This document shows positions 1-61,301 of a DNA stretch of 64,000 nucleotides, piece after piece. The stretch lies in NCBI GenBank assembly GCA_021734785.1, contig JAIPIF010000001.1:124001-188000 (forward strand). Direction: 5' to 3'. Source of the stretch: Candidatus Altimarinota bacterium. GTDB lineage: Bacteria > Patescibacteriota > Gracilibacteria > UBA4473. Within the stretch, counting starts at the first letter, position 1. The number at the start of each line of letters is the position of its first letter. The position numbers were made by a program, and so were the translations under genes. The notes below the pieces were generated by a model. That model searched no databases, was not told where the DNA came from, and worked only from the letters and a program-made list of their open reading frames with translations.

Positions 1-1418
1 GGACAGACCCAAAACACCTGCCGCTCCTTGGCCACCTGATCATCCAGAAAGACTTCCATTTTTTCGCGCGTTTTTGTATCGCCGATCACGCGGGTGACGA
101 TTTGTTTCCGCCCCGGCGGCAATTCATCAATCACTGAAATATCCTGATCTCCGTAAATGGTGAGGGCCAGCGTGCGTGGAATCGGCGTGGCGGTCATGGC
201 GACTGTGTGGCACTGGGTTTCCTGCAAAATAGCCCGTTGCTTTACCCCAAATCGGTGCTGCTCATCGATCACCGCGAGCCCGAGATTTGCAAACTCGGTA
301 TCCTCGGTCAAAATTGCATGCGTGCCCACCAGCACATCGATTTCTCCGGCCCTGAGCGCGGATTTGATTTCCTCCTTTTTTTTGCCCGGGACCGATCCAG
401 TCAGGAGTGCCACGTGCGCATCATCTCCAAAAAATTTCTTGGCCCCTGTGAAGTGCTGCTGCGCCAAAATTTCCGTCGGAGCCAGAAGCGCAACCTGGTT
501 TCCGGCCCGCACCTGCACGAGCCCCGCCAGAAACGCGACGACGGTTTTGCCACTCCCCACATCGCCCTGTACCAGGCGGTGCGCGGGGCGGTCTTTTTCG
601 AAATCCTTCAAAATATGCAACAAGACGCGTTTTTGTGCCTGGGTGAGCTCGAAGGGGAGTCGCTCGAAATCTTGCTTCACTTGTGCAGCATCAAAAGACA
701 CCCGGTACTGATTTTTTGCCTGCTGCTCCCGCAAAAATTTTTCCTGCAGGGATCGCACCTGGACCTCAAACACTTCTTCAAAGGCGAGCCGCTTTCTCGC
801 CGCCTCCCACTCGTCCCAGGATTTCGGCTTATGAATAGCTCGTACCGCTTCCGATTTTCCGATAAGATTTTCTGCTTCCAAAATTTCCGCCGGCAGGATC
901 TCTCCAAATTCTTTGACCAGGGGGAGGAGCCCGACGATTTTTTCGCGTAGCCATTTGCTCGTAATGGGGGGGGACTCAGAGTAGACCGCTCGCAGGCCCC
1001 CCACGTGGACGGCTTTCTCTACATGGACTTCGGGGTTGGAGATCTGAATTTGACCATAATTTCGATCGACTTTGCCAACGAGAAAAACACGGGATTCATC
1101 TTTGAGGTTTCGCAGCAAGTACGGGATCTGAAACCACACGACTTCTACGGTCGCTCCATCGGCCAGTACCAGCGCGGCACGGCCGAGCGTTTTGCCGCGC
1201 GCTGTTTTTTCTCGGCGGAAATCACAGAGTGTTCCCACGAGCGTATTTTTTTCTCCTAATTTTACCGACGGAAAGTCTTCGATAATTTCTGTCGACTCAA
1301 CTTTTCGGGGAAAATATTCCAGCAAATCTTGGACGGTTTTTTTGTCCAGGGATTCAAGTTTCTTGAGGTGGGCACTGGTGGTTTTGAGGACGGATTTCAA
1401 CGGCAGAGACAGACTCAT
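1..1418 (-). CDS. recG: ATP-dependent DNA helicase RecG (3' part outside window)
   Basis: Reverse-strand reading frame open from the ATG at 1418 to the window edge, about 472 codons of a protein that is usually near 700 residues, so the C-terminal part is missing. RecG remodels stalled replication forks and branched DNA. Visible are the N-terminal OB/wedge region, the Walker A motif GDVGSGKT (about 560 bases from the edge), the DEQHRFG box and the following TATPIPRTLA motif, an arrangement specific to RecG. A TAGAAT box at 1426-1431 ends 7 nt before the ATG, so the mRNA is probably leaderless. The gene diverges from the pilin gene at 1580. Identification is very secure. Confidence 0.96.
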   Translation of the reverse strand, partial: MSLSLPLKSVLKTTSAHLKKLESLDKKTVQDLLEYFPRKVESTEIIEDFPSVKLGEKNTLVGTLCDFRREKTARGKTLGRAALVLADGATVEVVWFQIPYLLRNLKDESRVFLVGKVDRNYGQIQISNPEVHVEKAVHVGGLRAVYSESPPITSKWLREKIVGLLPLVKEFGEILPAEILEAENLIGKSEAVRAIHKPKSWDEWEAARKRLAFEEVFEVQVRSLQEKFLREQQAKNQYRVSFDAAQVKQDFERLPFELTQAQKRVLLHILKDFEKDRPAHRLVQGDVGSGKTVVAFLAGLVQVRAGNQVALLAPTEILAQQHFTGAKKFFGDDAHVALLTGSVPGKKKEEIKSALRAGEIDVLVGTHAILTEDTEFANLGLAVIDEQHRFGVKQRAILQETQCHTVAMTATPIPRTLALTIYGDQDISVIDELPPGRKQIVTRVIGDTKTREKMEVFLDDQVAKERQVFWVC

Positions 1419-1493
1419 CGGTTGGATTCTATCAAAAAACTCGAAAAAAACTTGCCAAAAAAAATATTTTGCCTGAAAATTCACCTGAAGAGC

Positions 1494-1522
1494 TTGTGAA
1501 GCTTCCTTTTCTCGGGTATACT
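1494..1522 (+). promoter_or_regulatory. sigma70-type promoter of the pilin gene
   Basis: TTGTGA (1494-1499), 17 nt spacer, TATACT (1517-1522). Predicted start near 1529 gives a leader of about 50 nt before the ATG at 1580, one of the minority of long leaders in this window. Confidence 0.7.
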
Positions 1523-1579
1523 TGTCCCAGTTTCCGCGGAAAACCGCTTCTCTCACTCCTCCCTAAAAACTCCCGTACA

Positions 1580-1951
1580 ATGAAAAAATTCCTTGCTCCC
1601 GTCCTCGGACTCTTACTGGCGGTCAGTCTTTTGACAATCGAGCCAGCTGCGGCACAGCTCATTGATCCCGCTGACAGCCCAAATAACATCACCACCGCGA
1701 CGGGTGGCGAAGGATCGGCCCGAAGTCTGGCACGCACGATCATCAACTTTTTCCTCTACTTCCTCGGACTGGTGGCGACCATCATGGTGATTTACGGAGG
1801 ATTTCTCTACATCACCGCGGGGGGAGGCGACACCGAAAAAGCCAAAAAAGTTCTTTTGTACGCCGCCATCGGCATCATCGTAGTCTTGATCTCCTTTGCA
1901 CTGGTCAACACGCTCCTGCGGTCGGCAGATGGAGTGAGTACGGGATTCTGA
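1580..1951 (+). CDS. T4SS pilin-like small membrane protein (VirB2/TrbC type)
   Basis: 123 residues. A signal peptide (about 1-24, ending AAA/QL) is followed by a short polar stretch and two membrane helices (about 55-77 and 86-110) joined by a loop of the form GGG-DTEKAKK. This is the architecture of the T4SS_pilin family often seen in CPR genomes: a secreted pilin subunit or pore component. Start chosen at the MKKF methionine because it begins the signal peptide. No SD motif precedes it. The same helix-loop-helix unit occurs three times in each of the proteins encoded at 6626-7615 and 7615-8835, which suggests a shared envelope or secretion machine. Family call from motif resemblance; role inferred. 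Confidence 0.75.
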   Translation: MKKFLAPVLGLLLAVSLLTIEPAAAQLIDPADSPNNITTATGGEGSARSLARTIINFFLYFLGLVATIMVIYGGFLYITAGGGDTEKAKKVLLYAAIGIIVVLISFALVNTLLRSADGVSTGF

Positions 1952-5531: not shown

Positions 5532-6584
5532 TCAAACGCGCATCTTCTTGAGTTTTTCCAGTGCTTCGGCATTGGTGTCGAGAAAATCGATCTTTCCAAA
5601 ATCTGCCGGTGCCACCCAATCCAGCTTTTGCCCTTCCAGCGGTTTGGGTTCTCCTTTTTGAATTTGGCAACGGTGAAACCGAAGCAGGAGATCTGTTTTT
5701 TCAAACGGCAAAATTGTCTGAAAAAAATGGGGTCGCACGGAGACTTCCACGCCGATCTCCTCCCGTACCTCCCGCTGGACACACGCCCGAAACGACTCTC
5801 CCCTTTGCCGCTTTCCTCCCGGAAATTCCCACTGTCCGGAGAAGGTTTTGTCCTCTGGCCGAGTCTGAATCAGGTATTTTCCCTCTCGGTGAATGCAGGC
5901 AATGCCGATCTCCAGCCGCCATTTTTTTTGTGCGGGCTTTTTGGCGCTCCGTTTTTTGCGTTGGGGCTGAAATTTTTGCTGCACGTTTTCCGGAAAAAAT
6001 GCTCCGAGCTTTCCCGAAATAGTTTCCCCACCCCGCAGCGCCGTGGCCAGGTCCATCATGGCATTGTTCCATTTTCGTCCAGAACCACTGGCCACTACCA
6101 GCTCCTGTGCCATTTTTTCCACCCGTTTTCGGGGCCAGAGGACGCGAATGATTTTTTGGACATTCGTATCAATCGCCGCCACCGGATCGTCCCAAGCAAA
6201 GGCCCGGATGGCGGATGCAGTGTAGCTCCCGATCCCAGGAAGTGATTCGAGCGTTTTTTGTTCTCGCGGAAAGGTTCCCCCATATTTTTGGGCAATGATT
6301 TTGGCCGCGCGGAGCACATTTTTGCCTCGAGAATAGTATCCCAGTCCTTGCCAGACAGGAAAGACCTCCTCCCACGTCGCCCGTGCCAGCGTTTCAACCG
6401 TTGGAAATTGTGTCAAAAATGCTGGAAAATACTGTTTCTGTACACGCGGAACCTGGGTCTGCTGAAGCATGATTTCGCTGATCCAGATGGCATACGGATC
6501 TGTGGTTTTTCGCCAGGGCAGATCCCGCTTGTGTTGGTCGTACCAGTCGAGCAGTGCGTTACAAAAAGCTTTCGGCGTGGGCAT
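5532..6584 (-). CDS. mutY: MutY adenine glycosylase fused to a MutT-like Nudix hydrolase
   Basis: 350 residues. The N-terminal half is a MutY glycosylase: SEIMLQQTQV with catalytic Glu37, helix-hairpin-helix LPGIGSYTASAI (115-126) and catalytic Asp139 in AIDTNV. It removes A paired with 8-oxoG. The four Fe-S cysteines that normally follow (around 185-210) are absent, so this is a clusterless MutY. The C-terminal domain (223-350) keeps a complete Nudix box (G257-x5-E263-x7-REVREEIGV) and a MutT-like EGQ-LDW segment, whereas ordinary MutY C-domains have lost this box. It may therefore also hydrolyse 8-oxo-dGTP. ATG 6584 lies 8 nt after a TACAAC box. Confidence 0.93.
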   Translation of the reverse strand: MPTPKAFCNALLDWYDQHKRDLPWRKTTDPYAIWISEIMLQQTQVPRVQKQYFPAFLTQFPTVETLARATWEEVFPVWQGLGYYSRGKNVLRAAKIIAQKYGGTFPREQKTLESLPGIGSYTASAIRAFAWDDPVAAIDTNVQKIIRVLWPRKRVEKMAQELVVASGSGRKWNNAMMDLATALRGGETISGKLGAFFPENVQQKFQPQRKKRSAKKPAQKKWRLEIGIACIHREGKYLIQTRPEDKTFSGQWEFPGGKRQRGESFRACVQREVREEIGVEVSVRPHFFQTILPFEKTDLLLRFHRCQIQKGEPKPLEGQKLDWVAPADFGKIDFLDTNAEALEKLKKMRV

Positions 6585-6592
6585 CACACAAG

Positions 6593-6621
6593 GTTGTACC
6601 GAATTTTTTCCGAAAAAGCAA
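6593..6621 (-). promoter_or_regulatory. mutY promoter, leaderless
   Basis: TTGCTT (6621-6616), 17 nt, TACAAC (6598-6593), then 8 nt to the ATG at 6584. Confidence 0.75.
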
Positions 6622-7615: not shown

Positions 7616-8835
7616 CAGGAATTGATCAAAAATCGAGCAATGGTGTAGGCGGAGAAGCTGATAATCACTCCCAAAACATTGGCCATCAAAATGCGCTTTG
7701 CGCGGTTCATTTGATCCTCATTTCCAAAGCTCATGACATAGTACAGGCTCGAAAAAATCAACATGACGGTGGCAACAATTGCGACAAAAGAGAGCATGAA
7801 ATTGATCAATCCGCCGACCTCAGCTGCGAATATCAACCCGGTCATTTCGACGCCTTCCTTGAAGGAAAAAATCCGGATAAATACCTCTGCCATTAGGATA
7901 AAAATTGCTCCGAGCAAGAAGGACTGTAAAAACTGTTTTTCCTGAGAAATCGCTTCTTCTTTTTGTCCGCGGATAATGAGGTTATAGCCGGACATCAGCC
8001 CATTGAGGAGCATGAATCCCCCCACGATGTACTCAAAGAATCGGACAATTTGTTTTACCTTCTGGTACATGTTTGGCACCGCTCCGTCATTTCCTTGCAG
8101 GAGATCCCGATTGACCGGATCCAGGACTTTGAAGCCGACAAATTCCGCGACAGAAATAATAGCGAGTCCCAGAATAATCCAGCCAAACTGTTCTTTGTAT
8201 TTGCTGATGCGCTCATCCTGCCCTTGGGCGATAATAAATTTTATGCCCAGAACAATCAGATAAATAATGCCGATCCCTCCCAGGATTCGGTTGATCGTGC
8301 GCATGAGTTTTCCGTTTCGCCACGAAAACATGTCCCGGAGGCGATCTTCGTTGTCACCCATAAAATTATCGCCGGCCTGCATGACGAGATTTTTGTCTGT
8401 GTAAATGGGGTCGTAGTTTCGCGTGGTGAGAGGAAGATATTTCCCGAGCTCTTCAAAAAGAGCTTTTGCGTTTTCAAACTCTTTTGCCGCCTCGTAGCAA
8501 TTTTGAAACGAGAGCCCTTCTATCGAATATCCTTGGGGGAGAGCCCTTTTTGCTTTTCGGTCTTCTTCTGTGAGTTCGATATTCATTTTTCCTTTCCCTT
8601 TCTCAAAAGATTCCCGTGCTTCTCTGAGGAGTTTTGGATTGCTGTCGGCATTGTATTCCAGAAACGTTTGAAACTCTTCGGAGGTGCTTTGGGCACGGTA
8701 TGCTTTGAGATATTCACTTTTGGCTCCTTCACAGACATTTTGTATTACCGTCTCGCTTGGGGCGGCCCAGACAGCGCTTCCCGCCGACAAAAGCAGGGCA
8801 AATCCAAGTAAAAACCCACGAGATAGTTTTTTCAT
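7615..8835 (-). CDS. secreted membrane protein with N-terminal helical domain and three pilin-like hairpins
   Basis: 406 residues from ATG 8835. Signal peptide 1-24 (AWA/A), a charged, mostly helical exported domain (25-178, with cysteines at 35 and 113 that could pair), then three helix-loop-helix units at about 179-236, 261-324 and 341-405. The loops are AQGQDERISKYKEQ, RGQKEEAISQEKQF and FGNEDQMNRAKRI. It shares this threefold plan with the next gene downstream, with which it overlaps by one base. A TACAAT box ends 7 nt before the ATG. Possible role: paired subunits of a VirB6-like or pilin-derived membrane pore. Confidence 0.7.
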   Translation of the reverse strand: MKKLSRGFLLGFALLLSAGSAVWAAPSETVIQNVCEGAKSEYLKAYRAQSTSEEFQTFLEYNADSNPKLLREARESFEKGKGKMNIELTEEDRKAKRALPQGYSIEGLSFQNCYEAAKEFENAKALFEELGKYLPLTTRNYDPIYTDKNLVMQAGDNFMGDNEDRLRDMFSWRNGKLMRTINRILGGIGIIYLIVLGIKFIIAQGQDERISKYKEQFGWIILGLAIISVAEFVGFKVLDPVNRDLLQGNDGAVPNMYQKVKQIVRFFEYIVGGFMLLNGLMSGYNLIIRGQKEEAISQEKQFLQSFLLGAIFILMAEVFIRIFSFKEGVEMTGLIFAAEVGGLINFMLSFVAIVATVMLIFSSLYYVMSFGNEDQMNRAKRILMANVLGVIISFSAYTIARFLINS

Positions 8836-8842
8836 TCTCCAG

Positions 8843-8871
8843 ATTGTACCAGAAAAAGCGTTTGTTTTCAA
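8843..8871 (-). promoter_or_regulatory. promoter of the tandem-pilin operon, leaderless
   Basis: TTGAAA (8871-8866), 17 nt, TACAAT (8848-8843), then 7 nt to the ATG at 8835. Confidence 0.85.
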
Positions 8872-9473: not shown

Positions 9474-11213
9474 TTTATCAGAATTTGCCCCGAACTCTTC
9501 AAGGATATCCTGGGGGAGTTTTAGCTTGAATAAGAGCTTGTGAGTAATTTTTTGTCCTGCGGTGCGCCTCCCGGCAATAGGATCACTTGGTGTCACAGGA
9601 CGAGAATATACGATTATTTCTTGGATGAGGAGGTGAAATATTTTGTATAATTCCTCGCGGTCTTTTGTCACGCTAGTAAGCATTTTCTTGTATTTTTCTG
9701 AGAAGGCTTCCAGGGTTTTTTGATACCCAGTAGAAAGCGTTTTTTGGGCAATTTGTTCTTCCACAGTTTCAAGTGTTTTTTTAGTCTCTCTTGCTCCGTT
9801 TCTTATTTGTTCGATCTCCGCCTTTAGCGTGTCTGAATCAATGAATCCTTCAGTATGTTGAAATCGAAGAGACTGTTCCCTTTCTGGGGTGCCATTAACT
9901 ACCTTCCGCAATCTCTCAGCTTCTTTTCTTAGTTTTTCGACTTCTTTCTGTGTGGACTTCAGCCCTTGTTGGTATTCAAAAGCGGCTTTTGGATTCTTTA
10001 ATAATTTTTTCACAAATTCTAAAACGAAAGCTTCAATTTCATCGGCATTTATGGGAAGGGTTTTGCACTGTGAACTTGTTTTCCCCCCTTTTCGTTGGCC
10101 GCATTTATAGTAGAAGGAAAAGCGGTCTTTTCCTTTTTTGATTCGTTTTCGCTCTCCTACCCAGGTCATGTATTTTTTCTCTCCTTCTTTTGTGCTGGAG
10201 CAACAATCACATTTCAAAAGGCCTCGAAGCAGATAGAGGTGTTCGTCTTGTTTTCGTCGGGAAAGGTATTTTTCTGAAAGAAGCCGCCTTTTAGCTTTTT
10301 CAAAAGTAACACGATCTATGATAGCCGGTTGGCGAAAAGATGATTTTTTCCATTTTTCCCGCTTCAATCTTTTTCCCTTGCTAGTCTTATTGTAGTAATA
10401 ATCACCCACATAAATGCTGTCACTAAGTGTTTTTTTGATTTGCTCCGCCCGCCAAAAAGAAGGCGTATTTTTTTTGGTAAGGCTTCCTTTCCGTTTCACA
10501 TTCTTTATGGCTGATGCCTCAGGAGATAAGACTTCTTGATTGGTAAGTTTTTTTGCGATTGCAGCAAAGGAATGTTTTTGATCTACAAACTCATCAAAGA
10601 TAAAGCGGACAATTTCAGCTTCCTCTGGGAATATCTCAAGCCTCTTATCTGCACTTTTTTTGTAGCCATAAGGGGGAACTTTTCCCATGAAAACTCCCGC
10701 CCTAGCAGCCGCATCTCGTCCCGCCTGTGATCGCTCCCGGAATGTTTCCATTTCCAACTCTGCTATTACTCCTACGATTCCAAGGATAGCTCGCCCAAAG
10801 GCAGTAGAAGTATCAATGTTTTCATGTACGGAAAAAAATTCAACGTTGTGTTCTCCTAAAAAATCGATGACGTCCAGTAAAATTTTAAGCTTTCGGGCAA
10901 AGCGATCCATTTTGTACACAGCCACCATGTCAAAAGGCTTCTGGCCCTTTGGAGCATTCAAAATGGCCTCTTGTAGTTTTGCGAAGCCAGGTCTTTCTTC
11001 CATGGGAGTGGTCCCACTTACATCTTGGTCGATGTAAATATGCTCTTTTCCGGCAGAAATAAATCCTCCCCCCGGAGCATAAGACTTTGATTTTATGAGG
11101 CTTTCGATAGCGTGTTTTTGCAGAGCTATTCCGTATTTTTCCGTTTGGTCTTCAGTTGAAACCCTTAGGTAAATCGCAACGCGTTTCGGTGGAGCTTCTT
11201 GGTCTGACGGCAT
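9432..11213 (-). CDS. large serine recombinase / integrase
   Basis: 593 residues from ATG 11213 (8 nt after a TATACT box). N-terminal resolvase domain with catalytic Ser in IYLRVSTEDQ, DVSGTTPMEERPGF, and YKMDRFARKLK; recombinase domain (PYGYKK...); zinc ribbon around residues 350-400 (CDCC...YKCG...C); then a coiled coil (about 430-510). Such enzymes integrate and excise mobile elements at short att sites. Its last codons are read from the tRNA-Lys gene (the tail WWVRWGSNPRPIA is tRNA-derived), which shows that integration created the present stop and places the element directly right of the tRNA. Confidence 0.95.
   Translation of the reverse strand: MPSDQEAPPKRVAIYLRVSTEDQTEKYGIALQKHAIESLIKSKSYAPGGGFISAGKEHIYIDQDVSGTTPMEERPGFAKLQEAILNAPKGQKPFDMVAVYKMDRFARKLKILLDVIDFLGEHNVEFFSVHENIDTSTAFGRAILGIVGVIAELEMETFRERSQAGRDAAARAGVFMGKVPPYGYKKSADKRLEIFPEEAEIVRFIFDEFVDQKHSFAAIAKKLTNQEVLSPEASAIKNVKRKGSLTKKNTPSFWRAEQIKKTLSDSIYVGDYYYNKTSKGKRLKREKWKKSSFRQPAIIDRVTFEKAKRRLLSEKYLSRRKQDEHLYLLRGLLKCDCCSSTKEGEKKYMTWVGERKRIKKGKDRFSFYYKCGQRKGGKTSSQCKTLPINADEIEAFVLEFVKKLLKNPKAAFEYQQGLKSTQKEVEKLRKEAERLRKVVNGTPEREQSLRFQHTEGFIDSDTLKAEIEQIRNGARETKKTLETVEEQIAQKTLSTGYQKTLEAFSEKYKKMLTSVTKDREELYKIFHLLIQEIIVYSRPVTPSDPIAGRRTAGQKITHKLLFKLKLPQDILEEFGANSDKWWVRWGSNPRPIA
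9467..9473 (+). repeat. attL-like core in tRNA-Lys 3' end
   Basis: CCCACCA, identical to 15745-15751. On the left it completes tRNA-Lys; on the right the copy is followed by CGTCG, the sequence that follows the CCA end of the other two tRNAs here. This makes it the likely left crossover region of the element. Confidence 0.55.
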
Positions 11214-11307
11214 GGAGAGAAAGTATAGGATTGGCAATACCCGAAGTACTAAGCTTGTATTTCTTCTTTATTCTTATTTCTTATAAAAACTTCTTTTTAA
11301 ATATCCT

Positions 11308-14061: not shown

Positions 14062-14361
14062 CTATTTTTTGGAGACTGCCCCTTGAAAAAGAGAATGTAA
14101 TATTTTCTCGTCATCATTTTTTGCAGCGTACAGTTCTATTTCTATTTCGCGTGGAAGTGTTTTTTTATTTACAGTGAGGGTAGGGGCCTTTGCCGTAAAA
14201 AATTGGACGAGAGTGCCTTTTTTGTCCTTTTCAGAAGAAAATGATTTGTGTTCGATGGTGACTCCTTTTCCTAATTTTTTTACCAGCCCTTGTGTTACTT
14301 CTTCGATGGAAGTTTCTTTCAAGGGATCGTCGGACTTTGTGACGATTATTTTTTGCTTCAC
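14062..14361 (-). CDS. hypothetical 99-residue protein
   Basis: GTG start at 14361, preceded by TATCAT (14373-14368) with 6 nt between, as at other leaderless GTG genes here. The residues look like a small mixed alpha/beta domain with no membrane or signal segment. No family recognised. It diverges from the AlbA_2 gene, and the two promoters lie within about 50 bases of each other. Confidence 0.55.
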   Translation of the reverse strand: MKQKIIVTKSDDPLKETSIEEVTQGLVKKLGKGVTIEHKSFSSEKDKKGTLVQFFTAKAPTLTVNKKTLPREIEIELYAAKNDDEKILHSLFQGAVSKK

Positions 14362-14387
14362 GCGCTCATGATATCACATTTAGTTGG

Positions 14388-14417
14388 TTGGTAAAAACCC
14401 TCCAAAAAGCGTATAAT
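14388..14417 (+). promoter_or_regulatory. promoter of AlbA_2 gene, leaderless
   Basis: TTGGTA (14388-14393), 18 nt, consensus TATAAT (14412-14417), then 7 nt to the ATG at 14425. An upstream in-frame ATG at 14416 overlaps the -10 box and so cannot be the start. Confidence 0.75.
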
Positions 14418-14424
14418 GAGGGCG

Positions 14425-15648
14425 ATGTTGTATTTGGGAAAACCCGTCCACGAAATAAACCAAGCTGATCTTCAAAAGCTCATTGAGGAAGAGGTTGAAG
14501 AGAGCAAGCACATTGAGTACAAAGAATCACTTCCTTCAAACGGAGCAGAAGACAAAAAAGAATTTGCAGCAGACGTTTCAGCTTTTGCAAATGCTGATGG
14601 AGGAGTGATTATTTATGGTATGAAAGAAAATAGAGAAACGGGAATGCCAGAAGAGCTTTGTGGAGTAAGTGTTGACAATAGAGACGATGCGGTGCGACGA
14701 CTAGATCAAATGATAATGAATAAGATAGCTCCAAGAATACCTGGTGTAGAAATTGTTTCTGTGGAGTTAGAAGATGGGAAAATAGTGTTGATAATAAACA
14801 TTCCTAAAAGTTTCTCAATGCCTCACATGGTCTCTATAGGGGATTCTAGGTTTTATTTAAGGCGCTCTAAGAGCAGGCCTCCTCTCGACATAGAAGAAAT
14901 AAGAAACGCTTTTCTATTTTCAGATACTATTACCGAAAAAATTAAAAATTTTCGAACGGAAAGAATCGCCAAAATCTTAGCGGAAGACACGCCAGTAAAA
15001 CTAATATCCGGGGCAAAGATAGTATTACATATGGTGCCACTTGCAGCCTTTCATTCTCCCATGGAAGCCAATCTCCGATTCCTTTTGGAAAATTATTCAG
15101 AACACAGTAATGACCTACAGCCTTTTTGGTCCGGTGGTGGTTGGAATCCACCGCGTCCTAATTTTGATGGTTTAATCTCAGCACTGCCTCCCTCTGAAGG
15201 GAGAGAGGGAGTCGATACTTACTTTCAAATTTTTAAAAATGGAGCATTTGAAGCAGTAGATGTTGGCTTGTTATCAGAAGGAGAACAAATACCAATGTCG
15301 CTTTGCGAGGGGACGTTATTGAACGCTTTAACCCGCTATCTTAGGATTCAGAGAAAATTAGGAGTTTCTCCTCCGATTTTTATAATGGTTACCCTTCTTG
15401 AAGTGAAAAATTATATCGTTGATTCTGTGCCGCCTCCTGCGGGAAGAATCCCCATAGGAAGAAGAAATGACGTCAAGATTGATCGTGAAAACCTATTTTT
15501 GCCAGAAATAGTTTTGAAAGATTTTGACCAAAGCCTTCCTGAGCTAATGAAGCCGATCTTTGATGCTATGCACAATGCGGGAGGGTATGTAGGTTCTCGC
15601 AGTTACGATAATGAAGGAAATTATTGTGTTAATTGGGAACGTTCATAA
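14425..15648 (+). CDS. AlbA_2 (Schlafen-type) DNA-binding domain protein
   Basis: 407 residues. Residues about 15-165 form an AlbA_2 domain: ESKHIEYKESL, FANADGGVIIYGM, and the RFYLRRSKSRPPL segment ending the fold. The C-terminal 230 residues have no family I recognise. AlbA_2/Schlafen proteins bind nucleic acid and occur as regulators and as antiphage effectors. Location as the last gene of an integrative element makes a defence or element-control role plausible. AT-rich codons like the rest of the island. Confidence 0.85.
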   Translation: MLYLGKPVHEINQADLQKLIEEEVEESKHIEYKESLPSNGAEDKKEFAADVSAFANADGGVIIYGMKENRETGMPEELCGVSVDNRDDAVRRLDQMIMNKIAPRIPGVEIVSVELEDGKIVLIINIPKSFSMPHMVSIGDSRFYLRRSKSRPPLDIEEIRNAFLFSDTITEKIKNFRTERIAKILAEDTPVKLISGAKIVLHMVPLAAFHSPMEANLRFLLENYSEHSNDLQPFWSGGGWNPPRPNFDGLISALPPSEGREGVDTYFQIFKNGAFEAVDVGLLSEGEQIPMSLCEGTLLNALTRYLRIQRKLGVSPPIFIMVTLLEVKNYIVDSVPPPAGRIPIGRRNDVKIDRENLFLPEIVLKDFDQSLPELMKPIFDAMHNAGGYVGSRSYDNEGNYCVNWERS

Positions 15649-15943: not shown

Positions 15944-15971
15944 TTGGAAAATTTTCTCATTTCCCCACAAT
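15944..15971 (+). promoter_or_regulatory. mtaB promoter, leaderless
   Basis: TTGGAA (15944-15949), 16 nt, CACAAT (15966-15971), 8 nt to the ATG at 15980. Confidence 0.6.
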
Positions 15972-15979
15972 CGGTCCCG

Positions 15980-39527: not shown

Positions 39528-39555
39528 AGTGTACTGTGAAATGAGAATCGGGCAA
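39528..39555 (-). promoter_or_regulatory. murC promoter, leaderless GTG
   Basis: TTGCCC (39555-39550), 16 nt, TACACT (39533-39528), 7 nt to the GTG at 39520. Confidence 0.7.
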
Positions 39556-39558: not shown

Positions 39559-39586
39559 TTGACTTTCTATAAAAAAGAAGTATTTA
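39559..39586 (+). promoter_or_regulatory. promoter of the split gene at 39595, leaderless
   Basis: TTGACT (39559-39564), 16 nt, TATTTA (39581-39586), 8 nt to the ATG at 39595. The -35 boxes of this and the murC promoter are 3 nt apart. Confidence 0.65.
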
Positions 39587-39594
39587 TTCTAACA

Positions 39595-41540: not shown

Positions 41541-41570
41541 CGCGTCCATTGTGGGGTAGAATGAAAAAAA

Positions 41571-43255: not shown

Positions 43256-43262
43256 CTTTGAA

Positions 43263-43290
43263 ATTGTCCCACGACGGGGAATATTTTCAA
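43263..43290 (-). promoter_or_regulatory. pyrH promoter, leaderless
   Basis: TTGAAA (43290-43285), 16 nt, GACAAT (43268-43263), 7 nt to the ATG at 43255. Confidence 0.75.
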
Positions 43291-44227: not shown

Positions 44228-44235
44228 GTAGGGCG

Positions 44236-44286
44236 ATTGTGCCGTATTTTTCCAGATTTGCAAGTTGGGGCTTCCCGCAGTAGACT
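44236..44286. promoter_or_regulatory. divergent leaderless promoters sharing one -35 hexamer
   Basis: Self-complementary TTGCAA (44258-44263). Leftward: 16 nt then CACAAT (44241-44236), 8 nt to the rbfA ATG at 44227. Rightward: 17 nt then TAGACT (44281-44286), 7 nt to the ATG at 44294. Confidence 0.7.
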
Positions 44287-44293
44287 AGACGGG

Positions 44294-48246: not shown

Positions 48247-48267
48247 TTGGAAGAGTTGCAATAGAAT
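48240..48267 (+). promoter_or_regulatory. promoter of the DUF192 gene, leaderless GTG
   Basis: TTACCA (48240-48245), 16 nt, TAGAAT (48262-48267), 6 nt to the GTG at 48274. Confidence 0.6.
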
Positions 48268-48273
48268 GAAAAC

Positions 48274-48714
48274 GTGCAGAAATTTTTTCTCTTTTGTATT
48301 GTGGCATTTTTTCTTACCGGATGCGAGCCGGCGTCGCCGGAAAATATTCTCTCCACAATCCCTGTGCAGGTGGGAGATCAGACCTTCGTTGCGGAAGTAG
48401 CAGACACGCCCGCACTTCGCTCAGCCGGGCTGATGCATCGGGCAGATTTAGCTCCTGACGCGGGGATGCTCTTTGTGTTTGATACCCCTGACACGTACAG
48501 TTTTTGGATGAAAAACACGCTGATTCCGCTGGATGTGATCTGGATTTCTTCAGAAAAGGAAGTTGTGGAGGCTCAAACGCTGGAGCCCTGTCCGCTGACG
48601 GCACGCGAGTGTCCGTCTTTTGCCCCTTCTGCGCCGGCGCAGTGGGTGCTGGAAGTGGGAGCGGGGCAGTTTTCCGGGCAGATCGGGGACCGGGTGGAAT
48701 TTGATTTTGACTGA
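48274..48714 (+). CDS. DUF192 lipoprotein
   Basis: 146 residues. GTG start; the ATG at 48266 is in another frame. Lipoprotein signal ending LTG-C16. DUF192 domain: ADTPALRSAGLMHRADLAPDAGM, FVFDTPDTYSFWMKNTLIPLDVIWI and ending QWVLEVGAGQ. Members are exported small beta proteins of unknown role. A Cys pair (PCPLTARECP) may form a disulfide. Confidence 0.9.
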   Translation: MQKFFLFCIVAFFLTGCEPASPENILSTIPVQVGDQTFVAEVADTPALRSAGLMHRADLAPDAGMLFVFDTPDTYSFWMKNTLIPLDVIWISSEKEVVEAQTLEPCPLTARECPSFAPSAPAQWVLEVGAGQFSGQIGDRVEFDFD

Positions 48715-48729
48715 GTTTTTCGCTACAAA
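48701..48729 (+). promoter_or_regulatory. promoter of the dus operon, leaderless GTG
   Basis: TTGATT (48701-48706), 17 nt, TACAAA (48724-48729), 6 nt to the GTG at 48736. Lies over the end of the DUF192 gene. Confidence 0.65.
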
Positions 48730-48735
48730 TCGCGC

Positions 48736-49716
48736 GTGGGAAAACTCTTTGCCGACCTTCCGCGCCCCCTTCTTGCCCTCGCCCCGATGGCGGGCTACAC
48801 CGAGAGTCCGTTTCGACGGATGGTGCGGGAGATCGAGTCAAGCACGATTTTAGTCTCGGAGCTTCTCTCCGCCGAAGCGCTGCGGCGGGGATCGGAAAAA
48901 ACGCTTCGAATGGCCCAGTTTCATCCGAGCGAAAAACAGTATTTCGGTATCCAGCTTTTTGGGGCATCGGCCGAGGCGTTTGTGGCGGCATCTTCTATCA
49001 TTGAGGATTTGGGGGCGGACTTCATCGACCTCAATTTTGGCTGTCCTTCGCCCAAAATTATCAACTCCGGCAATGGTTCGGCGCTGCTTCAAGATTCCAG
49101 TGCCAGCGCGCGGATGATCGAGACACTCGTTGCCTCGACCTCCCTCCCAGTCACGGTCAAGATGCGACTGGGATTTTATTCGGACGACGATTTTTTGACC
49201 ACCTGCCAAAACTTCGAATCGGCTGGCATTTCGGCACTCGCTGTCCACGGCCGGACGACGAAGCAAAAATTCTCTGGGCAGGCGGATTGGGAAAAAATTT
49301 ATGAAGCCAAAGAACATTTAAACATCCCCGTGATCGGCAACGGAGACATCGATTCGGCGGAGACGGCAGTTGCTCGTCTCCAAAATTTAGATGGAGTGAT
49401 GATCGGCCGGGCGGCGATCCGCAATCCCTGGATTTTTGTGCAGTGTCGGGCGGCGTTTGCAGGCAAGCCCATTCCCCCCACGCCGGAGCTCTCCGCACTC
49501 TTGCAGTTTTTTCGCCGGCATGCGGAGCTCTCGATTGAGCAGAAGGGAGAAAAATGGGCGATGATGGAACTGCGAAAACATTTTGCCCATCTGGTTCGCG
49601 GAATGCCGGGGGCGGCACAGTTTCGCGAGCGGCTCATTCGGGTGGAGACATTTCCTGAGCTTACAGAAATTTTTGACGCGATCTCTGCTTCCGTGCACAC
49701 TCAAAACGATGTCTGA
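48736..49716 (+). CDS. dus: tRNA-dihydrouridine synthase
   Basis: 326 residues. FMN TIM-barrel: LAPMAGYTESPFRRMVRE, QLFGASAEAFVAAS, DLNFGCPSPKI with catalytic Cys, VKMRLGFYSDD, AVHGRTTKQKFSGQADW, NGDIDSAETAV and MIGRAAIRNPWIF. DusB-type by these motifs. First gene of a four-gene operon joined by short overlaps. Confidence 0.96.
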   Translation: MGKLFADLPRPLLALAPMAGYTESPFRRMVREIESSTILVSELLSAEALRRGSEKTLRMAQFHPSEKQYFGIQLFGASAEAFVAASSIIEDLGADFIDLNFGCPSPKIINSGNGSALLQDSSASARMIETLVASTSLPVTVKMRLGFYSDDDFLTTCQNFESAGISALAVHGRTTKQKFSGQADWEKIYEAKEHLNIPVIGNGDIDSAETAVARLQNLDGVMIGRAAIRNPWIFVQCRAAFAGKPIPPTPELSALLQFFRRHAELSIEQKGEKWAMMELRKHFAHLVRGMPGAAQFRERLIRVETFPELTEIFDAISASVHTQNDV

Positions 49717-53565: not shown

Positions 53566-54669
53566 TCACACATTAAATTTAAAATGCATCACGTCGCCAT
53601 CTCGGACCACGTACTCTTTTCCCTCGGTCCGCAGCTTGCCTGCATCACGTGCGCCTGATTCTCCGCGGTTTTTTACAAAATCTTCGTATGCGATGACATC
53701 GGCCTTGATAAATCCTTTTTCAAAATCCGTGTGAATGGCTCCTGCGGCTTGAGGCGCAGTCTCTCCCTGACGAATAGTCCAGGCGCGGACTTCTTTTGGC
53801 CCTGCGGTGAAATACGTTTGCAACCCGAGCAGAGTGAAACTTTTTTGTGCGAGCGCCTCGAGTCCGGATTTTTTCGCTCCGAGCTCTGCGAGGAATTCTT
53901 TCCGTTCCTCCGGGTCAAGCTCACTTAGCTCCGCTTCCGTGCGGGCGCAGATGGGGATGATGGGAATGGATTCAAATTTCCCTCCCAGTTTTTCTCGGAA
54001 CGCGGCCTCATCCCAGTCCACAAAACGCGCTTCACTGGTATTTGCCACGATCAAAAAGGGCTTTGCTGTGAGCAAATGGATTGTTTTGAAAATTTTGTAT
54101 TCTTCTTCACTGAGGCTTCCTCGAAGCTCGCTCGCGAGGTTCCCCGCCTCCAAAAGCTCTTTTACTTGCTCCAGAATTTTCAATTCTGCTTTGGCGGTTT
54201 TGTCACCGGATTTTGCCTTTTTTCCCACGCGCTCGATCTGTCGATCGACTGATTCCAGATCTGCCAGGATGAGTTCGGTGAGGATCACTTCCAGATCTTC
54301 TGCCGGGCTTACTCGTGCCGAAACGTGGTGGACATTTTCATCTTCAAAATCCCGCAGTACGTGCGCAATCGCCTGACATTCGCGGATGTGAGAGAGGAAC
54401 TTATTCCCGAGTCCTTCGCCCTGACTCGCTCCAGCCACCAGCCCCGCGATGTCGACAAATTCAATCACTGCAGGGAGGACCCTCTCCGGGTTTGCAATCT
54501 CCGCGAGCTTTCCCAGCCGATCATCGGGGACGCTCACGATGCCGACATTTGGGTCAATCGTACAAAAAGGGAAGTTTTCGGCAGCGGCATTTTTCGCCCC
54601 CGTCAACGCGTTAAACAGTGTTGACTTCCCGACATTTGGCAGACCGACGATTCCAATTTTTAGATTCAT
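53566..54669 (-). CDS. ychF: ribosome-binding ATPase YchF
   Basis: 367 residues. Obg-related: KIGIVGLPNVGKSTLFNAL, FPFCTIDPNVGIV, DIAGLVAGASQGEGLGNKFL, then NTSEAR and the C-terminal TGS domain (ELSELDPEERKEFL ... FTAGPKEVRAWTI). The G4 motif NKxD is replaced by NTSE as usual in YchF, which prefers ATP. Convergent with ppnN with no gap. Confidence 0.97.
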   Translation of the reverse strand: MNLKIGIVGLPNVGKSTLFNALTGAKNAAAENFPFCTIDPNVGIVSVPDDRLGKLAEIANPERVLPAVIEFVDIAGLVAGASQGEGLGNKFLSHIRECQAIAHVLRDFEDENVHHVSARVSPAEDLEVILTELILADLESVDRQIERVGKKAKSGDKTAKAELKILEQVKELLEAGNLASELRGSLSEEEYKIFKTIHLLTAKPFLIVANTSEARFVDWDEAAFREKLGGKFESIPIIPICARTEAELSELDPEERKEFLAELGAKKSGLEALAQKSFTLLGLQTYFTAGPKEVRAWTIRQGETAPQAAGAIHTDFEKGFIKADVIAYEDFVKNRGESGARDAGKLRTEGKEYVVRDGDVMHFKFNV

Positions 54670-54676
54670 CGAAGAG

Positions 54677-54704
54677 AGTGTACGAAATGAAAATATTTTT
54701 TCAA
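54677..54704 (-). promoter_or_regulatory. ychF promoter, leaderless
   Basis: TTGAAA (54704-54699), 16 nt, TACACT (54682-54677), 7 nt to the ATG at 54669. Confidence 0.75.
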
Positions 54705-55802: not shown

Positions 55803-57287
<1,485 letters not shown>

Positions 57288-57535
57288 AAAAAGAAAAAGC
57301 TTGAAAATAGTTGTGCCAAGAATGGTGTCTACTGGCGATGCCAGCATTTCCCATCTCAGCGGGATCAAACTCTTTCTCAAAGAGTTGATACTTTTCCAAT
57401 ACACGCAAAGCGCGACTGAAAAAGATTTTATCACTAAAGAATAAACATTGATTTTTTACTGCGTCCGAAATGAAAAAGAACTTTTGACCGTCTGTCTCAC
57501 GTTTTCTTCTGTGTATCCGACGAAACGGCTGGGCG

Positions 57536-57601: not shown

Positions 57602-57629
57602 TTGTTTTTTCCCCTAAAATCACTACAAT
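57602..57629 (+). promoter_or_regulatory. promoter of the 57637 gene, leaderless
   Basis: TTGTTT (57602-57607), 16 nt, TACAAT (57624-57629), 7 nt to the ATG. Diverges from the rRNA promoter. Confidence 0.7.
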
Positions 57630-57636
57630 ACTGGCG

Positions 57637-58038
57637 ATGGAAGGCGAGATTTTTCTGGGAATTGTTGTCCTCATTGTCCTTTTGGGGGCGGCAGTGATGA
57701 TTTCTCGTCGCAAACCAAAACTTTCGGCAGGAGATCGACAGCATTTTCAGCAACAAATCGCCGCGACAGCTTCGTTGGATCCAGCGCATTCTGTGTTGGA
57801 ATCTCACAAGATTTTTATCACAGCGTTGGGTCAGCTTTTGGGGGATCGTGGCACAAAACTAATGGCAGCCGAACGCGTGCGGCGTTTTCAGGCTCGGTTT
57901 CCCAATGCCAAACACGTGTGGGTGTCTCATCGATTGCGCAATCGCATTGCTCATGAAACCGGCATACAGGTTTCTGCGGTTCAGGCCGAGCAGGCCCGCG
58001 CCAATTTTTCTCGCGCGCTGGGGGCACTCAGCCGTTGA
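57637..58038 (+). CDS. membrane-anchored hypothetical protein
   Basis: 133 residues from the ATG placed by the promoter. N-terminal membrane helix (about 4-24, IFLGIVVLIVLLGAAVMI), then a basic helical cytoplasmic domain (HVWVSHRLRNRIAHETGIQVS) with a pattern typical of small CPR proteins. No family recognised. Convergent with rmlD, 11 bases overlapping. Confidence 0.65.
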   Translation: MEGEIFLGIVVLIVLLGAAVMISRRKPKLSAGDRQHFQQQIAATASLDPAHSVLESHKIFITALGQLLGDRGTKLMAAERVRRFQARFPNAKHVWVSHRLRNRIAHETGIQVSAVQAEQARANFSRALGALSR

Positions 58039-58864
58039 GTTCTTCGAGATACCTTTCTAGGCTCTCACGCCAGTCTGGCATCTCGGGAAGTTTTGTATTT
58101 TTGAGTACCGAATTAATCGGCCGTTTTGCGGGTCGCGAAAGTTCTTTTCCCGAAATATGCGTGACCGTCCCCAGCCATCCGTGGAGGTGGAGAATTTTTT
58201 CGGCGAGTTCTGCCCGACTGACAGGGGGACCAGAATTTTGTAAATGGTAGTGGCCTTTTTCGGGTGTCTGTTTCACAAAATGCTCAATCGTGTGGCGAGC
58301 AAGATCATCGGTAAATGTCGGGCGTCCGATCTCATCACTCACCACCTGGATCACGGACTGTCGTTCTGCCCGGTGAAGGATTTTGCTGACAAAATTGGCC
58401 CCGGCCATCCCCACCAGCCACGTCGTGCGCACATTCCACCAGGGAGTGCGGTTCCGTTCCAGCAGGATTTCCGCTTTGGCTTTGCTCTGACCGTACTGGT
58501 TTTGTGGATCTCGCGGGAAATTTTCTGGTATTTCAATCCGCGAAGGAGCCCCAAACACATAATCAGTTGAAAAATGGAGTATCGGAATTTTGTACTGGAG
58601 GAGTCGCTCGAGCGCAACGACATTGACGGCTTCACATTTTTGCTTTTCCGTTTCGGCGCGGTCGACGTCCGTCCAGGCGGCGCAGTGGAGAATCTTTTCA
58701 AATCCTTCCGGGGGATGTTTGCGAAAAAAGAGTGCCATTGAGTCGGCACTCGCCAGATCAAGTGTGTCGTGTCTGGGAGCGAGGAAGTCAATTTTCTCTT
58801 TTGTGAGCCGTTTTTCTATCGCACTTCCCAGGAGCCCTGTCCGTCCGAGTAACAGCAATTTCAT
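58028..58864 (-). CDS. rmlD: dTDP-4-dehydrorhamnose reductase (RmlD-like)
   Basis: 278 residues. Short-chain NAD(P)-dependent reductase of the RmlD substrate-binding family: LLLLGRTGLLGSAI, DLASADSMALFF, HCAAWTDVDRAE, STDYVFG and catalytic NQYGQSKAKAE (Tyr-x3-Lys). It makes dTDP-L-rhamnose for surface glycans. The other rml genes are absent here, and MAT2B-like or other SDR substrates are possible. Confidence 0.88.
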   Translation of the reverse strand: MKLLLLGRTGLLGSAIEKRLTKEKIDFLAPRHDTLDLASADSMALFFRKHPPEGFEKILHCAAWTDVDRAETEKQKCEAVNVVALERLLQYKIPILHFSTDYVFGAPSRIEIPENFPRDPQNQYGQSKAKAEILLERNRTPWWNVRTTWLVGMAGANFVSKILHRAERQSVIQVVSDEIGRPTFTDDLARHTIEHFVKQTPEKGHYHLQNSGPPVSRAELAEKILHLHGWLGTVTHISGKELSRPAKRPINSVLKNTKLPEMPDWRESLERYLEELNG

Positions 58865-58871
58865 CGATTTT

Positions 58872-58900
58872 CTTGTACCCCAAAACACAGACTAGATCAA
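58872..58900 (-). promoter_or_regulatory. rmlD promoter, leaderless
   Basis: TTGATC (58900-58895), 17 nt, TACAAG (58877-58872), 7 nt to the ATG at 58864. Confidence 0.65.
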
Positions 58901-59536: not shown

Positions 59537-59612
59537 TTTTGACACAATTACGTTTGAGTTGCTTTTATTGACAAAGTGGACAAAGTCAAGCGAATTCTCG
59601 AGAATTTTTTGA

Positions 59613-59641
59613 TTGTATTTTTCCCGCCGTCCTGCTAGGTT
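59613..59641 (+). promoter_or_regulatory. dnaG promoter, leaderless
   Basis: TTGTAT (59613-59618), 17 nt, TAGGTT (59636-59641), 7 nt to the ATG at 59649. Confidence 0.65.
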
Positions 59642-59648
59642 TCGCCCG

Positions 59649-61301
59649 ATGAATGATCGGTTTACGGAGGATCTCAAAAATCGTCTCGACATCGTCGAAA
59701 TCGTGCGGAAGTACGCCGAGCTCAAAAAGTCGGGGAAAAATTTCATGTGTAAATCACCGTTTCGCAATGAGCGCACGCCGAGTTTTTGCGTTTCGCCGGA
59801 CAAACAGTTTTGGTACGACTTCGGTTCCAGTGAGGGAGGAGACGTGATCTCCTTTATCGAGCGGATTGAAAACTTGAGTTTCCCAGAAGCCGTCGATCAT
59901 TTGGCACAAGTCGCGGGAGTGGATGTCCCCAAAAACTTCGGCGGGGGGAGTGTTTCCCAAGAAAAAAAAACGGACCTCTTTGCTCTGCATCGAAAAGCCG
60001 CCGAGTACTTTTCCCAACAGCTTCAGGCGTCTCCCATCGCCCAAAAATATCTGGCCGATCGCGGAATTTCCGACACAGAGATTTCCGACTGGAACCTGGG
60101 ATACGGCGGAGACACGGCGGACGGGCTGACCAAATTTCTCCTGGCGGACGGGTACTCGCCCTCGCAGATTGCGGAGTCTGGGGTGGCGTTTGAGCGGGAG
60201 TTTGGCCAAAAGACCATGCGTGACCGGTTTGATGGACGTATCATGATTCCGATTCATGAGCCACGCAACGGGGAAATTATTGCTTTTACCGGTCGAAAAT
60301 TGCGAGAAGATCAGCACGGCGGGAAGTATGTGAATTCCCCCGAAAACCCTGTGTACCACAAGAGTGCGACGCTCTTTGGTCTGCACCGCGCGCGAAAAAA
60401 AATTCGAGATCGAGATGCCGCGATTTTGGTGGAAGGAAATTTTGATGTGATTTCCGCACACGCGGCGGGGTTTGACCACTGCGTGGCGACCTGCGGGACG
60501 GCGCTGACCGAGGACCATTTGCGCGTACTGCGGCGTCTGACCAAAAATATTTTGCTCGCATTTGATACCGATGCCGCCGGCAAAAAAGCCACGCTTCGTG
60601 CCGTTGAATTGTGTTTACGGATAGAGTTGGAGCCACGAATCGTCGAAATTTCAGCCGGAAAAGATCTTGATGACCTGTTTCATCAGGATGCCAAAGCCGC
60701 TTCAAAATCAATCAAAGAAGCCCAGCCGGCGCTGGAGTTTCTCTTCGAAAAAATTGCCGAAAAACTTCTGGATGGTTCGATTGCGGGAGAAAAAAAGTTT
60801 CTGGATACCTTTTTCTTTTTCCTCGCGCTCGTGTCCCGTCCAGTAGAAGTGGACGAGTGGATCCGTCGGCTTTCTGAAAAGTTAAATCGCTCACGGCAGG
60901 TGATCGAGGACGAATTCAAAAAGTTTTCCGTGCGGGATGCCGGGTACCAAAAAGAAAAACTGGTCGATTCTTCACGTCAAAAAATCTCACGCCCGGAATC
61001 TTTTGTCGGGTTTCTCTCAGCGTTTTGGGATTTTTTCTCGTCAAAGCTGGATCCCAAGATTTTGGACATTTTCCCAGACGGCGACGCACGAGATCTGTTG
61101 GGCAAGAAGATTTTGAATCAAGATTTGTCTGATGAGGAGCGGGTGCGTCTGGCAGGATGGGAGCTCTCGCAAGCAAATTTATATGACGAGCATGTGGGGG
61201 AGGATCTGCTCAAACAGACGTTTGAGTCCTTTGCTCAGATTTTGCAGCGAGAAAAACAAAAATGTGATCGACGAGAGGCGGCGAAAAACTTGAAGTTTTG
61301 A
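59649..61301 (+). CDS. dnaG: DNA primase DnaG without zinc ligands
   Basis: 550 residues. Makes RNA primers for replication. The N-terminal CHC2 domain is recognisable (RLDIVEIVRKYAELKKSG, PSFCVSPDKQFWYDFG, SEGGDVISFIE), but the four zinc ligands are replaced: KSPFR for the CPFH motif and YDFGS for the HCFGC motif. The RNA polymerase domain is normal, with EGNFDVI and the TOPRIM DTDAAGKKA. The C-terminal helicase-binding region is short and divergent. Start at MNDRFTEDL. Confidence 0.95.
   Translation: MNDRFTEDLKNRLDIVEIVRKYAELKKSGKNFMCKSPFRNERTPSFCVSPDKQFWYDFGSSEGGDVISFIERIENLSFPEAVDHLAQVAGVDVPKNFGGGSVSQEKKTDLFALHRKAAEYFSQQLQASPIAQKYLADRGISDTEISDWNLGYGGDTADGLTKFLLADGYSPSQIAESGVAFEREFGQKTMRDRFDGRIMIPIHEPRNGEIIAFTGRKLREDQHGGKYVNSPENPVYHKSATLFGLHRARKKIRDRDAAILVEGNFDVISAHAAGFDHCVATCGTALTEDHLRVLRRLTKNILLAFDTDAAGKKATLRAVELCLRIELEPRIVEISAGKDLDDLFHQDAKAASKSIKEAQPALEFLFEKIAEKLLDGSIAGEKKFLDTFFFFLALVSRPVEVDEWIRRLSEKLNRSRQVIEDEFKKFSVRDAGYQKEKLVDSSRQKISRPESFVGFLSAFWDFFSSKLDPKILDIFPDGDARDLLGKKILNQDLSDEERVRLAGWELSQANLYDEHVGEDLLKQTFESFAQILQREKQKCDRREAAKNLKF

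What the first reader, a model, noticed from the sequence alone, without database searches (positions are those of the whole stretch)
1418..59649. Most promoters end 6-8 nt before the start codon: pervasive leaderless transcription
More than 20 genes on both strands have a sigma70-type -10 box with only 6-8 nt before the ATG or GTG (start positions 1418, 6584, 8835, 11213, 14361, 14425, 15980, 23729, 28116, 39520, 39595, 41540, 41571, 43255, 44227, 44294, 48274, 48736, 54669, 57637, 58864, 59649), most of them also with a -35 box at 16-18 nt. Transcripts would begin at or within a base or two of the start codon. Genes inside operons instead use ATGA/TGATG overlaps. Leaderless genes are established as common in Actinobacteria and Deinococcus; as the dominant mode in a CPR-type genome this looks notable.
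Basis: seen in the sequence. Interest (0 to 1): 0.85.

Follow-up and report, generated by a model that had tools for sequence, protein, structure and literature searches.

The report
Leaderless genes with eroded anti-Shine-Dalgarno
In this uncultured bacterium with a small genome, roughly a third of promoters appear to start the messenger RNA at, or one letter before, the protein's first codon, and the ribosome's usual RNA matching sequence has decayed, so its genes seem to be translated without the textbook signal.

Summary
The listed sites are real: 21 of 22 have a -10 box with at least 4/6 matches 6-8 nt before the codon (internal ATG/GTG: 38 of 616). Starts called without this signal show the same peak, 56 TANNNT hits against 9.7 expected in 246 genes; E. 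coli K-12 shows none. Family profiles fix the start for 10 of 10 listed genes scanned. 'Most promoters' is too strong: 23 of 58 strong promoters are leaderless; many others have U-rich leaders without SD words. New here: the 16S 3' end in the window reads CCGCC, not CCUCC; 10 of 12 readable tails of this Gracilibacteria family are altered, and SD words are not above background. When the canonical -10 lies 7-8 nt away, G precedes AUG in 20/31 genes, and in 32/57 in seven relatives versus 64/502: a predicted one-nucleotide leader, 5'-G-AUG. One genome of another family predicts 5'-AUG. Leaderless bacterial genes are known, and SD scarcity without CCUCC is reported for a few CPR genomes (PMC10783764). 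There are no transcript data; 5' ends are inferred.

The parts
55804..57288 (-). 16S rRNA gene (only one found in the assembly)
   Evidence: RF00177 1450.7 bits, model 1-1533
55807..55811 (-). anti-Shine-Dalgarno core, reads CCGCC instead of CCTCC (context GGAATACCGCCTTT)
   Evidence: relatives
54669..54682 (-). leaderless promoter -10 TACACT, 7 nt before ATG of ychF (start 54669)
   Evidence: TIGR00092 residue 1 = model 1
43255..43268 (-). -10 GACAAT 7 nt before ATG of pyrH (43255); a second candidate -10 GAAAAT at 27 nt
44227..44241 (-). -10 CACAAT 8 nt before ATG of rbfA-like gene (44227); my caller chose 44191
41540..41553 (-). -10 CACAAT 7 nt before ATG of gpmI (41540); my caller chose 41549; divergent promoter overlaps that of 41571
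41557..41571 (+). -10 TAGAAT 8 nt before ATG 41571; TAAAAT 8 nt before the start in the same-genus relative G001
39520..39533 (-). -10 TACACT 7 nt before GTG of murC (39520)
8835..8848 (-). -10 TACAAT 7 nt before ATG 8835; TATAAT 7 nt before the start in G001
23729..23742 (-). -10 TACAAT 7 nt before ATG 23729
44281..44294 (+). -10 TAGACT 7 nt before ATG 44294; TACACT 8 nt before the start in G001
57624..57637 (+). -10 TACAAT 7 nt before ATG 57637
14412..14425 (+). -10 TATAAT (6/6) 7 nt before ATG 14425
14361..14373 (-). -10 TATCAT 6 nt before GTG 14361
1418..1431 (-). -10 TAGAAT 7 nt before ATG 1418 (ORF runs off the window)
6584..6598 (-). -10 TACAAC 8 nt before ATG of mutY-like gene (6584)
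11213..11227 (-). -10 TATACT 8 nt before ATG 11213
15966..15980 (+). -10 CACAAT 8 nt before ATG of a MiaB/MtaB-type gene (15980); a second candidate -10 GAAAAT at 27 nt
28116..28130 (-). -10 GACAAT 8 nt before ATG 28116
48262..48274 (+). -10 TAGAAT 6 nt before GTG 48274 (my caller chose 48364)
48724..48736 (+). -10 TACAAA 6 nt before GTG of dusB-like gene (48736)
58864..58877 (-). -10 TACAAG 7 nt before ATG of rmlD-like gene (58864)
59636..59649 (+). -10-like TAGGTT 7 nt before ATG of dnaG (59649); weakest of the list (3/6); another candidate pair with -10 GAGAAT at 43 nt
39583..39595 (+). listed site 39595: TTTATT before a 39-codon ORF, probably not a gene start

Best explanation
This Gracilibacteria-class genome starts translation largely without Shine-Dalgarno pairing, by at least two routes. 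Route 1, leaderless, about a third of transcription units by my estimate: a sigma70-type promoter places the -10 box (often TACAAT or TACACT) 6-8 nt before the start codon, so RNA polymerase begins at the first codon or, in this family, most often at a G one base before it (5'-G-AUG); the ribosome presumably engages the 5'-terminal start codon directly. Route 2, leadered: the same promoter type lies roughly 15-50 nt upstream, followed by a U/C-rich, G-poor leader often ending in C before AUG. About half of closely following genes overlap their neighbour (ATGA, TGATG) and presumably reinitiate. As none of these gene classes shows SD words above background, the 16S anti-SD would be under little constraint and has drifted to CCGCC and similar forms in this family. 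Shown: box positions, lack of SD words, the altered 16S tail, homology-fixed starts, partial conservation in relatives. Inferred: exact 5' ends, direct ribosome binding, reinitiation, the order of loss.
For: Positional peak against shuffles, internal ATGs and E. coli. TTGAC/TTGCC/TTGTC/TTGAA words peak 35-37 nt before starts (7, 10 and 9 hits versus about 2 per position). TACANT precedes 4 of 11 tRNA genes at 16-30 nt, so it is not a start-codon signal. N-termini placed by NCBIfam models in 10 of 10 listed genes scanned. Orthologues in f1 relatives (29-83% aa identity) have TANNNT at 6-8 nt in 18 of 43 pairs, versus 15 of 85 where the query lacks it (p=0.003). YR step at -2/-1 in 22 of 36 canonical leaderless genes versus 44 of 185. 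SD words in 7 of 246 upstreams versus 15-25 in control windows; E. coli 46 of 92 versus 2-8. Anti-SD changed in 10 of 12 readable f1 tails; NNGCC variant in 3 of 379 phylum genomes, all f1, intact core in 98.
Against: No transcript or protein data. TTG at the -35 place is only weakly enriched (17/55 versus 30/178, p=0.02) and about as frequent as before TANNNT boxes elsewhere (31/109). 25 of 246 genes have T-rich TANNNT hits that are probably leader sequence. Several leaderless-looking genes also carry an upstream -35/-10 pair, for example 43255, 15980, 59649 and L012:5738. Three of 11 tRNA genes have no TANNNT within 60 nt and one has it at 5 nt. Two f1 genomes show a weak peak (G015, G012). 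Genus g10 keeps CCTCC yet G010 shows no SD (0 of 127), so anti-SD loss does not simply track SD loss. IF3, which disfavours leaderless mRNA in E. coli (recalled), is present in 57 of 60 genomes searched.
Confidence: 0.8

Rival explanations
1. The TANNNT motif before starts is a translation or AT-rich context signal (as in Bacteroidota), and transcripts start further upstream.
For: A T-rich subset (25 of 246 genes) looks like leader sequence, some with a strong promoter 24-26 nt upstream.
Against: The canonical subset has TACAAT/TACACT, hexamers also found before 4 of 11 tRNA genes; TTGAC-like words peak at 35-37 nt; an initiator-like YR step is enriched just before the AUG.
Confidence: 0.1
2. 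The peak is an artefact of start calling: codons were chosen, by the reader or by the caller, because a box lay nearby.
Against: The caller used coding potential and a bonus for ATG only and still gives the peak; model-placed N-termini in 10 of 10; E. coli shows no peak with the same code.
Confidence: 0.03
3. The organism uses an altered SD matching its own CCGCC tail (GGCGG-type leaders), so SD pairing is kept by co-evolution.
For: Such compensation is reported for Acidilobus sp. 7A (PMC10783764, passages read).
Against: AGGC/GGCG/GCGG in 7 of 165 first-gene and 2 of 80 operon-gene upstreams, versus 8-10 and 7-10 in control windows.
Confidence: 0.04
4. The altered 16S tail is an assembly or binning error.
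For: Single-copy 16S in a 77% complete draft genome.
Against: Altered tails in several genera and in 12 of 19 named loci sharing the family's helix 45 sequence; the trailer can still pair with the changed core.
Confidence: 0.03

Closest known systems
Leaderless genes of Actinobacteria and Deinococcus-Thermus (Zheng 2011 PMC3160421; Shell 2015 PMC4633059; passages read)
   Same: TANNNT Pribnow-like box about 10 bp upstream of the start; around 20% (Actinobacteria) and around 40% (five Deinococcus-Thermus genomes) of genes
   Different: No anti-SD loss is mentioned for them in the passages read; in M. tuberculosis the RTG codon sits at +1 (1098) more often than at +2 to +5 together (558), whereas here the predicted AUG position is mostly +2 after a G
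SD-scarce organisms lacking CCUCC, category iv of PMC10783764 (passages read)
   Same: Few SD words and altered anti-SD core; its Table 4 already names CPR members (Absconditabacteria, Campbellbacteria, Wolfebacteria, Peribacter riflensis of Peregrinibacteria). It already argues, for Nanoarchaeia, that leaderless mRNAs relax selection on CCUCC, and mentions leaderless mRNA for some Flavobacteriia
   Different: In the passages read there is no promoter analysis or leaderless claim for the CPR members, and I did not see this family named; its supplementary lists were not readable
Bacteroidota / FCB initiation with AT-rich non-SD signals (PMC9581028 and PMC10783764, passages read)
   Same: Leaders without SD, AT-rich upstream signal
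   Different: Here the upstream leaders are U/C-rich and coexist with a leaderless class whose -10 box is positioned at 6-8 nt

Membership tests
Bacterial leaderless genes | -10 box ending about 6-8 nt before the start codon, above chance | tested here: met
   56 versus 9.7 in 246 genes; E. coli 4 versus 3.8
Bacterial leaderless genes | start codon fixed independently of the box | tested here: met
   10 of 10 listed genes scanned align from near the model N-terminus
Bacterial leaderless genes | -35 element at 16-18 nt | tested here: inconclusive
   TTGAC-like peak at 35-37 nt, but TTG-in-place 17/55 versus 30/178
Bacterial leaderless genes | mRNA 5' end at +1 of the start codon | not testable with these tools
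   needs differential RNA-seq
SD-scarce organisms lacking CCUCC | 16S core not CCUCC | tested here: met
   CCGCC; 10 of 12 readable f1 tails altered
SD-scarce organisms lacking CCUCC | few genes with SD words | tested here: met
   word count only, no hybridisation energies: 7 of 246 versus 15-25 in control windows
SD with altered but co-evolved anti-SD | leaders complementary to the own tail | tested here: not met
   7 of 165 and 2 of 80, at or below controls

The most novel reading that the evidence does not exclude
A whole bacterial family has made the one-nucleotide leader 5'-G-AUG its standard form of 'leaderless' mRNA, uses U-rich leaders (ending in C before AUG in this genome) for its other promoters, and has given up SD/anti-SD pairing; a related family (one f5 genome seen) settled on 5'-AUG exactly. 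Initiation without SD would then be lineage-tuned at single-nucleotide precision.
Probability: 0.45. Interest if true: 0.75.

Novelty: new variant of a known kind. Interest (0 to 1): 0.62.

Why it matters
It offers a natural system in which leaderless promoters, lack of SD words and anti-SD decay occur together, with relatives that keep CCUCC. That makes the question of whether SD loss precedes anti-SD decay testable in bacteria, and gene callers tuned to SD may misplace starts in this group. The predicted G-AUG 5' end is a sharp, falsifiable claim about how ribosomes recognise leaderless messages.

Tried and rejected
An EM motif search drifted to A-tracts and gave no usable spacing. Early per-genome gene calls failed on TGA-recoded genomes and did poorly on small or partly masked samples; reran them with TAA/TAG stops for G030, G032, G050, G057, G058. 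Genomes with under 40 kb of letters (G002, G003, G005, G013, G014, G031, G036, G042) were dropped from then on, but the f1 ones stayed in the orthologue search. G008 (26 genes; 3 versus 2.0) enters only through the f1 pool.

A class-wide leaderless claim was rejected: the canonical box (TANVVT) shows no significant peak in G021, G040, G024, G030, G032, G050, G057, G058; TANNNT as a whole is raised in G040, G032 and G058 (p=0.007, 0.02, 0.04), mainly by T-rich hits. Co-evolved SD was rejected. The TANVVT subset was defined after looking at the table; the G at -1 was first seen there and then tested in other genomes. Poisson and Fisher values treat genes as independent. Orthologues: 191 pairs, 144 alignable N-termini, 128 with a start codon within 4 codons (81 at the exact place).

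Literature: I searched for leaderless or SD work in CPR, and for gene-start tools. I read passages of PMC12641178, PMC6851277, PMC10783764, PMC9581028, PMC4535381, PMC3160421, PMC7441243, PMC4633059; other hits I saw only as listings, and some hits were not listed. Apart from PMC10783764 I saw no passage on SD or anti-SD loss in CPR, and none on leaderless genes there. Most subscription papers are not held and supplements could not be read.
Full report
What was checked. The window is G000:C1:124001-188000 of a 1,058,383-base, 9-contig genome, 76.8% complete. I call its family f1, after the tool's label. TGA is taken as a stop here (109 of 257 called genes end in it), while five class relatives (G030, G032, G050, G057, G058) show long ORFs mainly if TGA is sense.

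Of 22 listed starts, 21 have a hexamer with at least 4/6 identities to TATAAT ending 6-8 nt before the codon; among 616 internal ATG/GTG codons 38 do. Signal-blind calls give 17 of 48 window starts (p=2e-8). The ten listed genes that I scanned are ordinary housekeeping genes: ychF, pyrH, gpmI and dnaG above their NCBIfam cut-offs, a MiaB-family gene above its subfamily cut-off, and murC, rbfA, dusB, mutY and rmlD as best matches below cut-off. In all ten the model begins at protein residue 1-14 in step with model position 1-11, so the start codon cannot be far off. 39595 is not a convincing gene.

Genome scale. I sampled 310 kb of G000 (window plus 13 stretches). Genes were called by coding potential with a small bonus for ATG, not by upstream signals. 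TANNNT at 6-8 nt: 56 versus 9.7 expected from distances 15-55, 8.4 in dinucleotide shuffles; internal ATGs 1.3-1.6%. E. coli K-12 with the same code: 4 versus 3.8, and SD words in 46 of 92 upstreams. Seven other f1 genomes pooled: 134 versus 50.0; singly, G001, G010, G018 and G006 are clear for the canonical box, G015 and G012 weak. Outside the family the peak is clear in G035 (f5; 28 versus 5.0) and G025 (f7; 12 versus 3.2), modest in G043 (19 versus 9.5), and not significant for the canonical box in G021, G040, G024, G030, G032, G050, G057, G058. It is therefore not a class-wide trait in my samples, several of which are small.

Two promoter classes. Strong -35/-10 pairs before first genes: 23 of 58 lie 5-9 nt from the start, 14 at 20-29, 13 at 30 or more, 6 at 10-19, 2 below 5. 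In a looser set, 39 promoters 15-50 nt upstream have T-rich leaders poor in G, with C at -1 in 64%. A stricter set of 25 was sampled: of 10 proteins scanned, six had a family (S16, seryl-tRNA synthetase, SecD, a V-type ATPase B subunit, PurL, an aminotransferase) and four had none. Of 10 leaderless proteins outside the window, five had a family (RecJ, PyrB, an LctP-type permease, FtsW, CCA nucleotidyltransferase). The leadered sets include 43255 and 15980, which have candidate boxes at both places. Canonical SD words occur in 1 of 165 first-gene and 6 of 80 operon-gene upstreams (controls 12-16 and 3-10). TANNNT also catches 25 genes with T-rich hits, which I set apart. 37 of 157 divergent or distant genes have TANNNT at 6-8 nt; correcting roughly for background and for non-TANNNT boxes (13 of the 22 listed are TANNNT), about a third of first genes look leaderless. 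This is an estimate.

Genes inside operons. Of 80 codirectional genes within 40 nt, 40 overlap their neighbour (28 by 4 nt, 7 by 1 nt); 3 of those 40 have TANNNT at 6-8 nt, against 13 of the 40 that do not overlap, so some operon genes may have their own leaderless start.

The 5' end. With a canonical box 7-8 nt away, G stands before the AUG in 20 of 31 genes here and in 32 of 57 in seven relatives, versus 43/179 and 64/502 of other genes (p=2e-5 and 9e-13). With a canonical box 6 nt away, a pyrimidine precedes it in 4 of 5 here and 8 of 15 in relatives (G in 6 of those 15). In G035 the commonest distance is 6 and all 12 canonical ones have a pyrimidine at -1. A discriminator of about 6-7 nt and the usual pyrimidine-purine start step (recalled) then predict 5'-G-AUG in f1 and 5'-AUG in G035. 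This is inference.

The ribosome. The 16S 3' end inside the window reads GGAATACCGCCTTT. In f1, 10 of 12 readable tails have G in the core (CCGCC, TCGCC, CTGCC); the two with CCTCC are one genus, g10; the G008 tail is cut by the contig end and seven f1 genomes were not read. Of the 19 named loci, 12 tails are altered, six have CCTCC (three with the g10 tail, three with tails of the neighbouring family f15) and one is cut. In single-sequence folds the trailer still forms a hairpin with the changed core in each f1-like tail, which suggests that processing rather than mRNA pairing constrains it. In 379 genomes drawn from the phylum, the intact core pattern occurs in 98 and the G variant in 3, all f1; the others match neither exact pattern, so nothing is concluded for them. 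Among the listed rows (list cut short), f5 has C-to-T changes in 52 of 55 genomes and f14/f21 in 31 of 31 (hand count). SD words are not above background in 17 of 18 class genomes tabulated, G010 of g10 included (0 of 127); the exception is G058 (6 of 36 versus 1-2). As g10 keeps CCTCC without SD use, SD use was probably lost before the anti-SD drifted, unless g10 regained CCTCC. IF3 is found in 57 of 60 genomes searched, bS21 in 23 of 60 (9 above cut-off), and an S1-like protein, below the rpsA cut-off, in 19 of 20 relatives (G000 itself has only a weak S1-domain hit).

Conservation. For 43 orthologue pairs whose G000 member has TANNNT at 6-8 nt, 18 relatives have it too; for 85 other pairs, 15 do (p=0.003).

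Known or new. Leaderless genes at about 20-40% are known in Actinobacteria and Deinococcus-Thermus (PMC3160421, passages). SD-scarce genomes without CCUCC are known and already include CPR members, one a Peregrinibacterium; the same paper links leaderless mRNA to CCUCC loss in Nanoarchaeia (PMC10783764, passages). What I did not find in print in the searches named under Tried and rejected is the leaderless promoter architecture in Gracilibacteria, the one-nucleotide G leader, and this family's core change.

Noticed in passing
window 55780-55811 and f1 16S loci (L032-L039, L041, several of L143-L161): The eroded anti-SD can still pair with the first bases of the 16S trailer (for example CGCC with GGCG), with matching changes across relatives; a precursor hairpin seems conserved while the SD function is not.
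   Followed up: partly
class Gracilibacteria, families f5, f14, f21: The anti-SD core drifts by C-to-T changes (CTTCC, TCTCC, TTTCC) in most listed genomes of these families.
   Followed up: partly
window 41540-41571, 39520-39595, 44227-44294, 14361-14425: Divergent listed starts lie only 31-75 bp apart, so in 41540/41571 the two promoters overlap almost completely.
   Followed up: no
L013:3446-3964 (-): Ribosomal protein S16 of 173 aa; the family model covers residues 4-80 only, so there is a C-terminal extension of about 90 aa.
   Followed up: no
G058 sample (f14, TGA apparently sense): The only class genome tabulated with SD words above background (6 of 36 versus 1-2), although its core is TCTCC.
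   Followed up: no
tRNA upstreams in the G000 sample: Four of 11 tRNA genes have a TACANT box 16-30 nt upstream, so the genome's -10 seems to favour C at the third position.
   Followed up: partly
window 5532-6584 (-): MutY-type glycosylase whose C-terminal part (residues 223-347) matches MutT/Nudix models.
   Followed up: no
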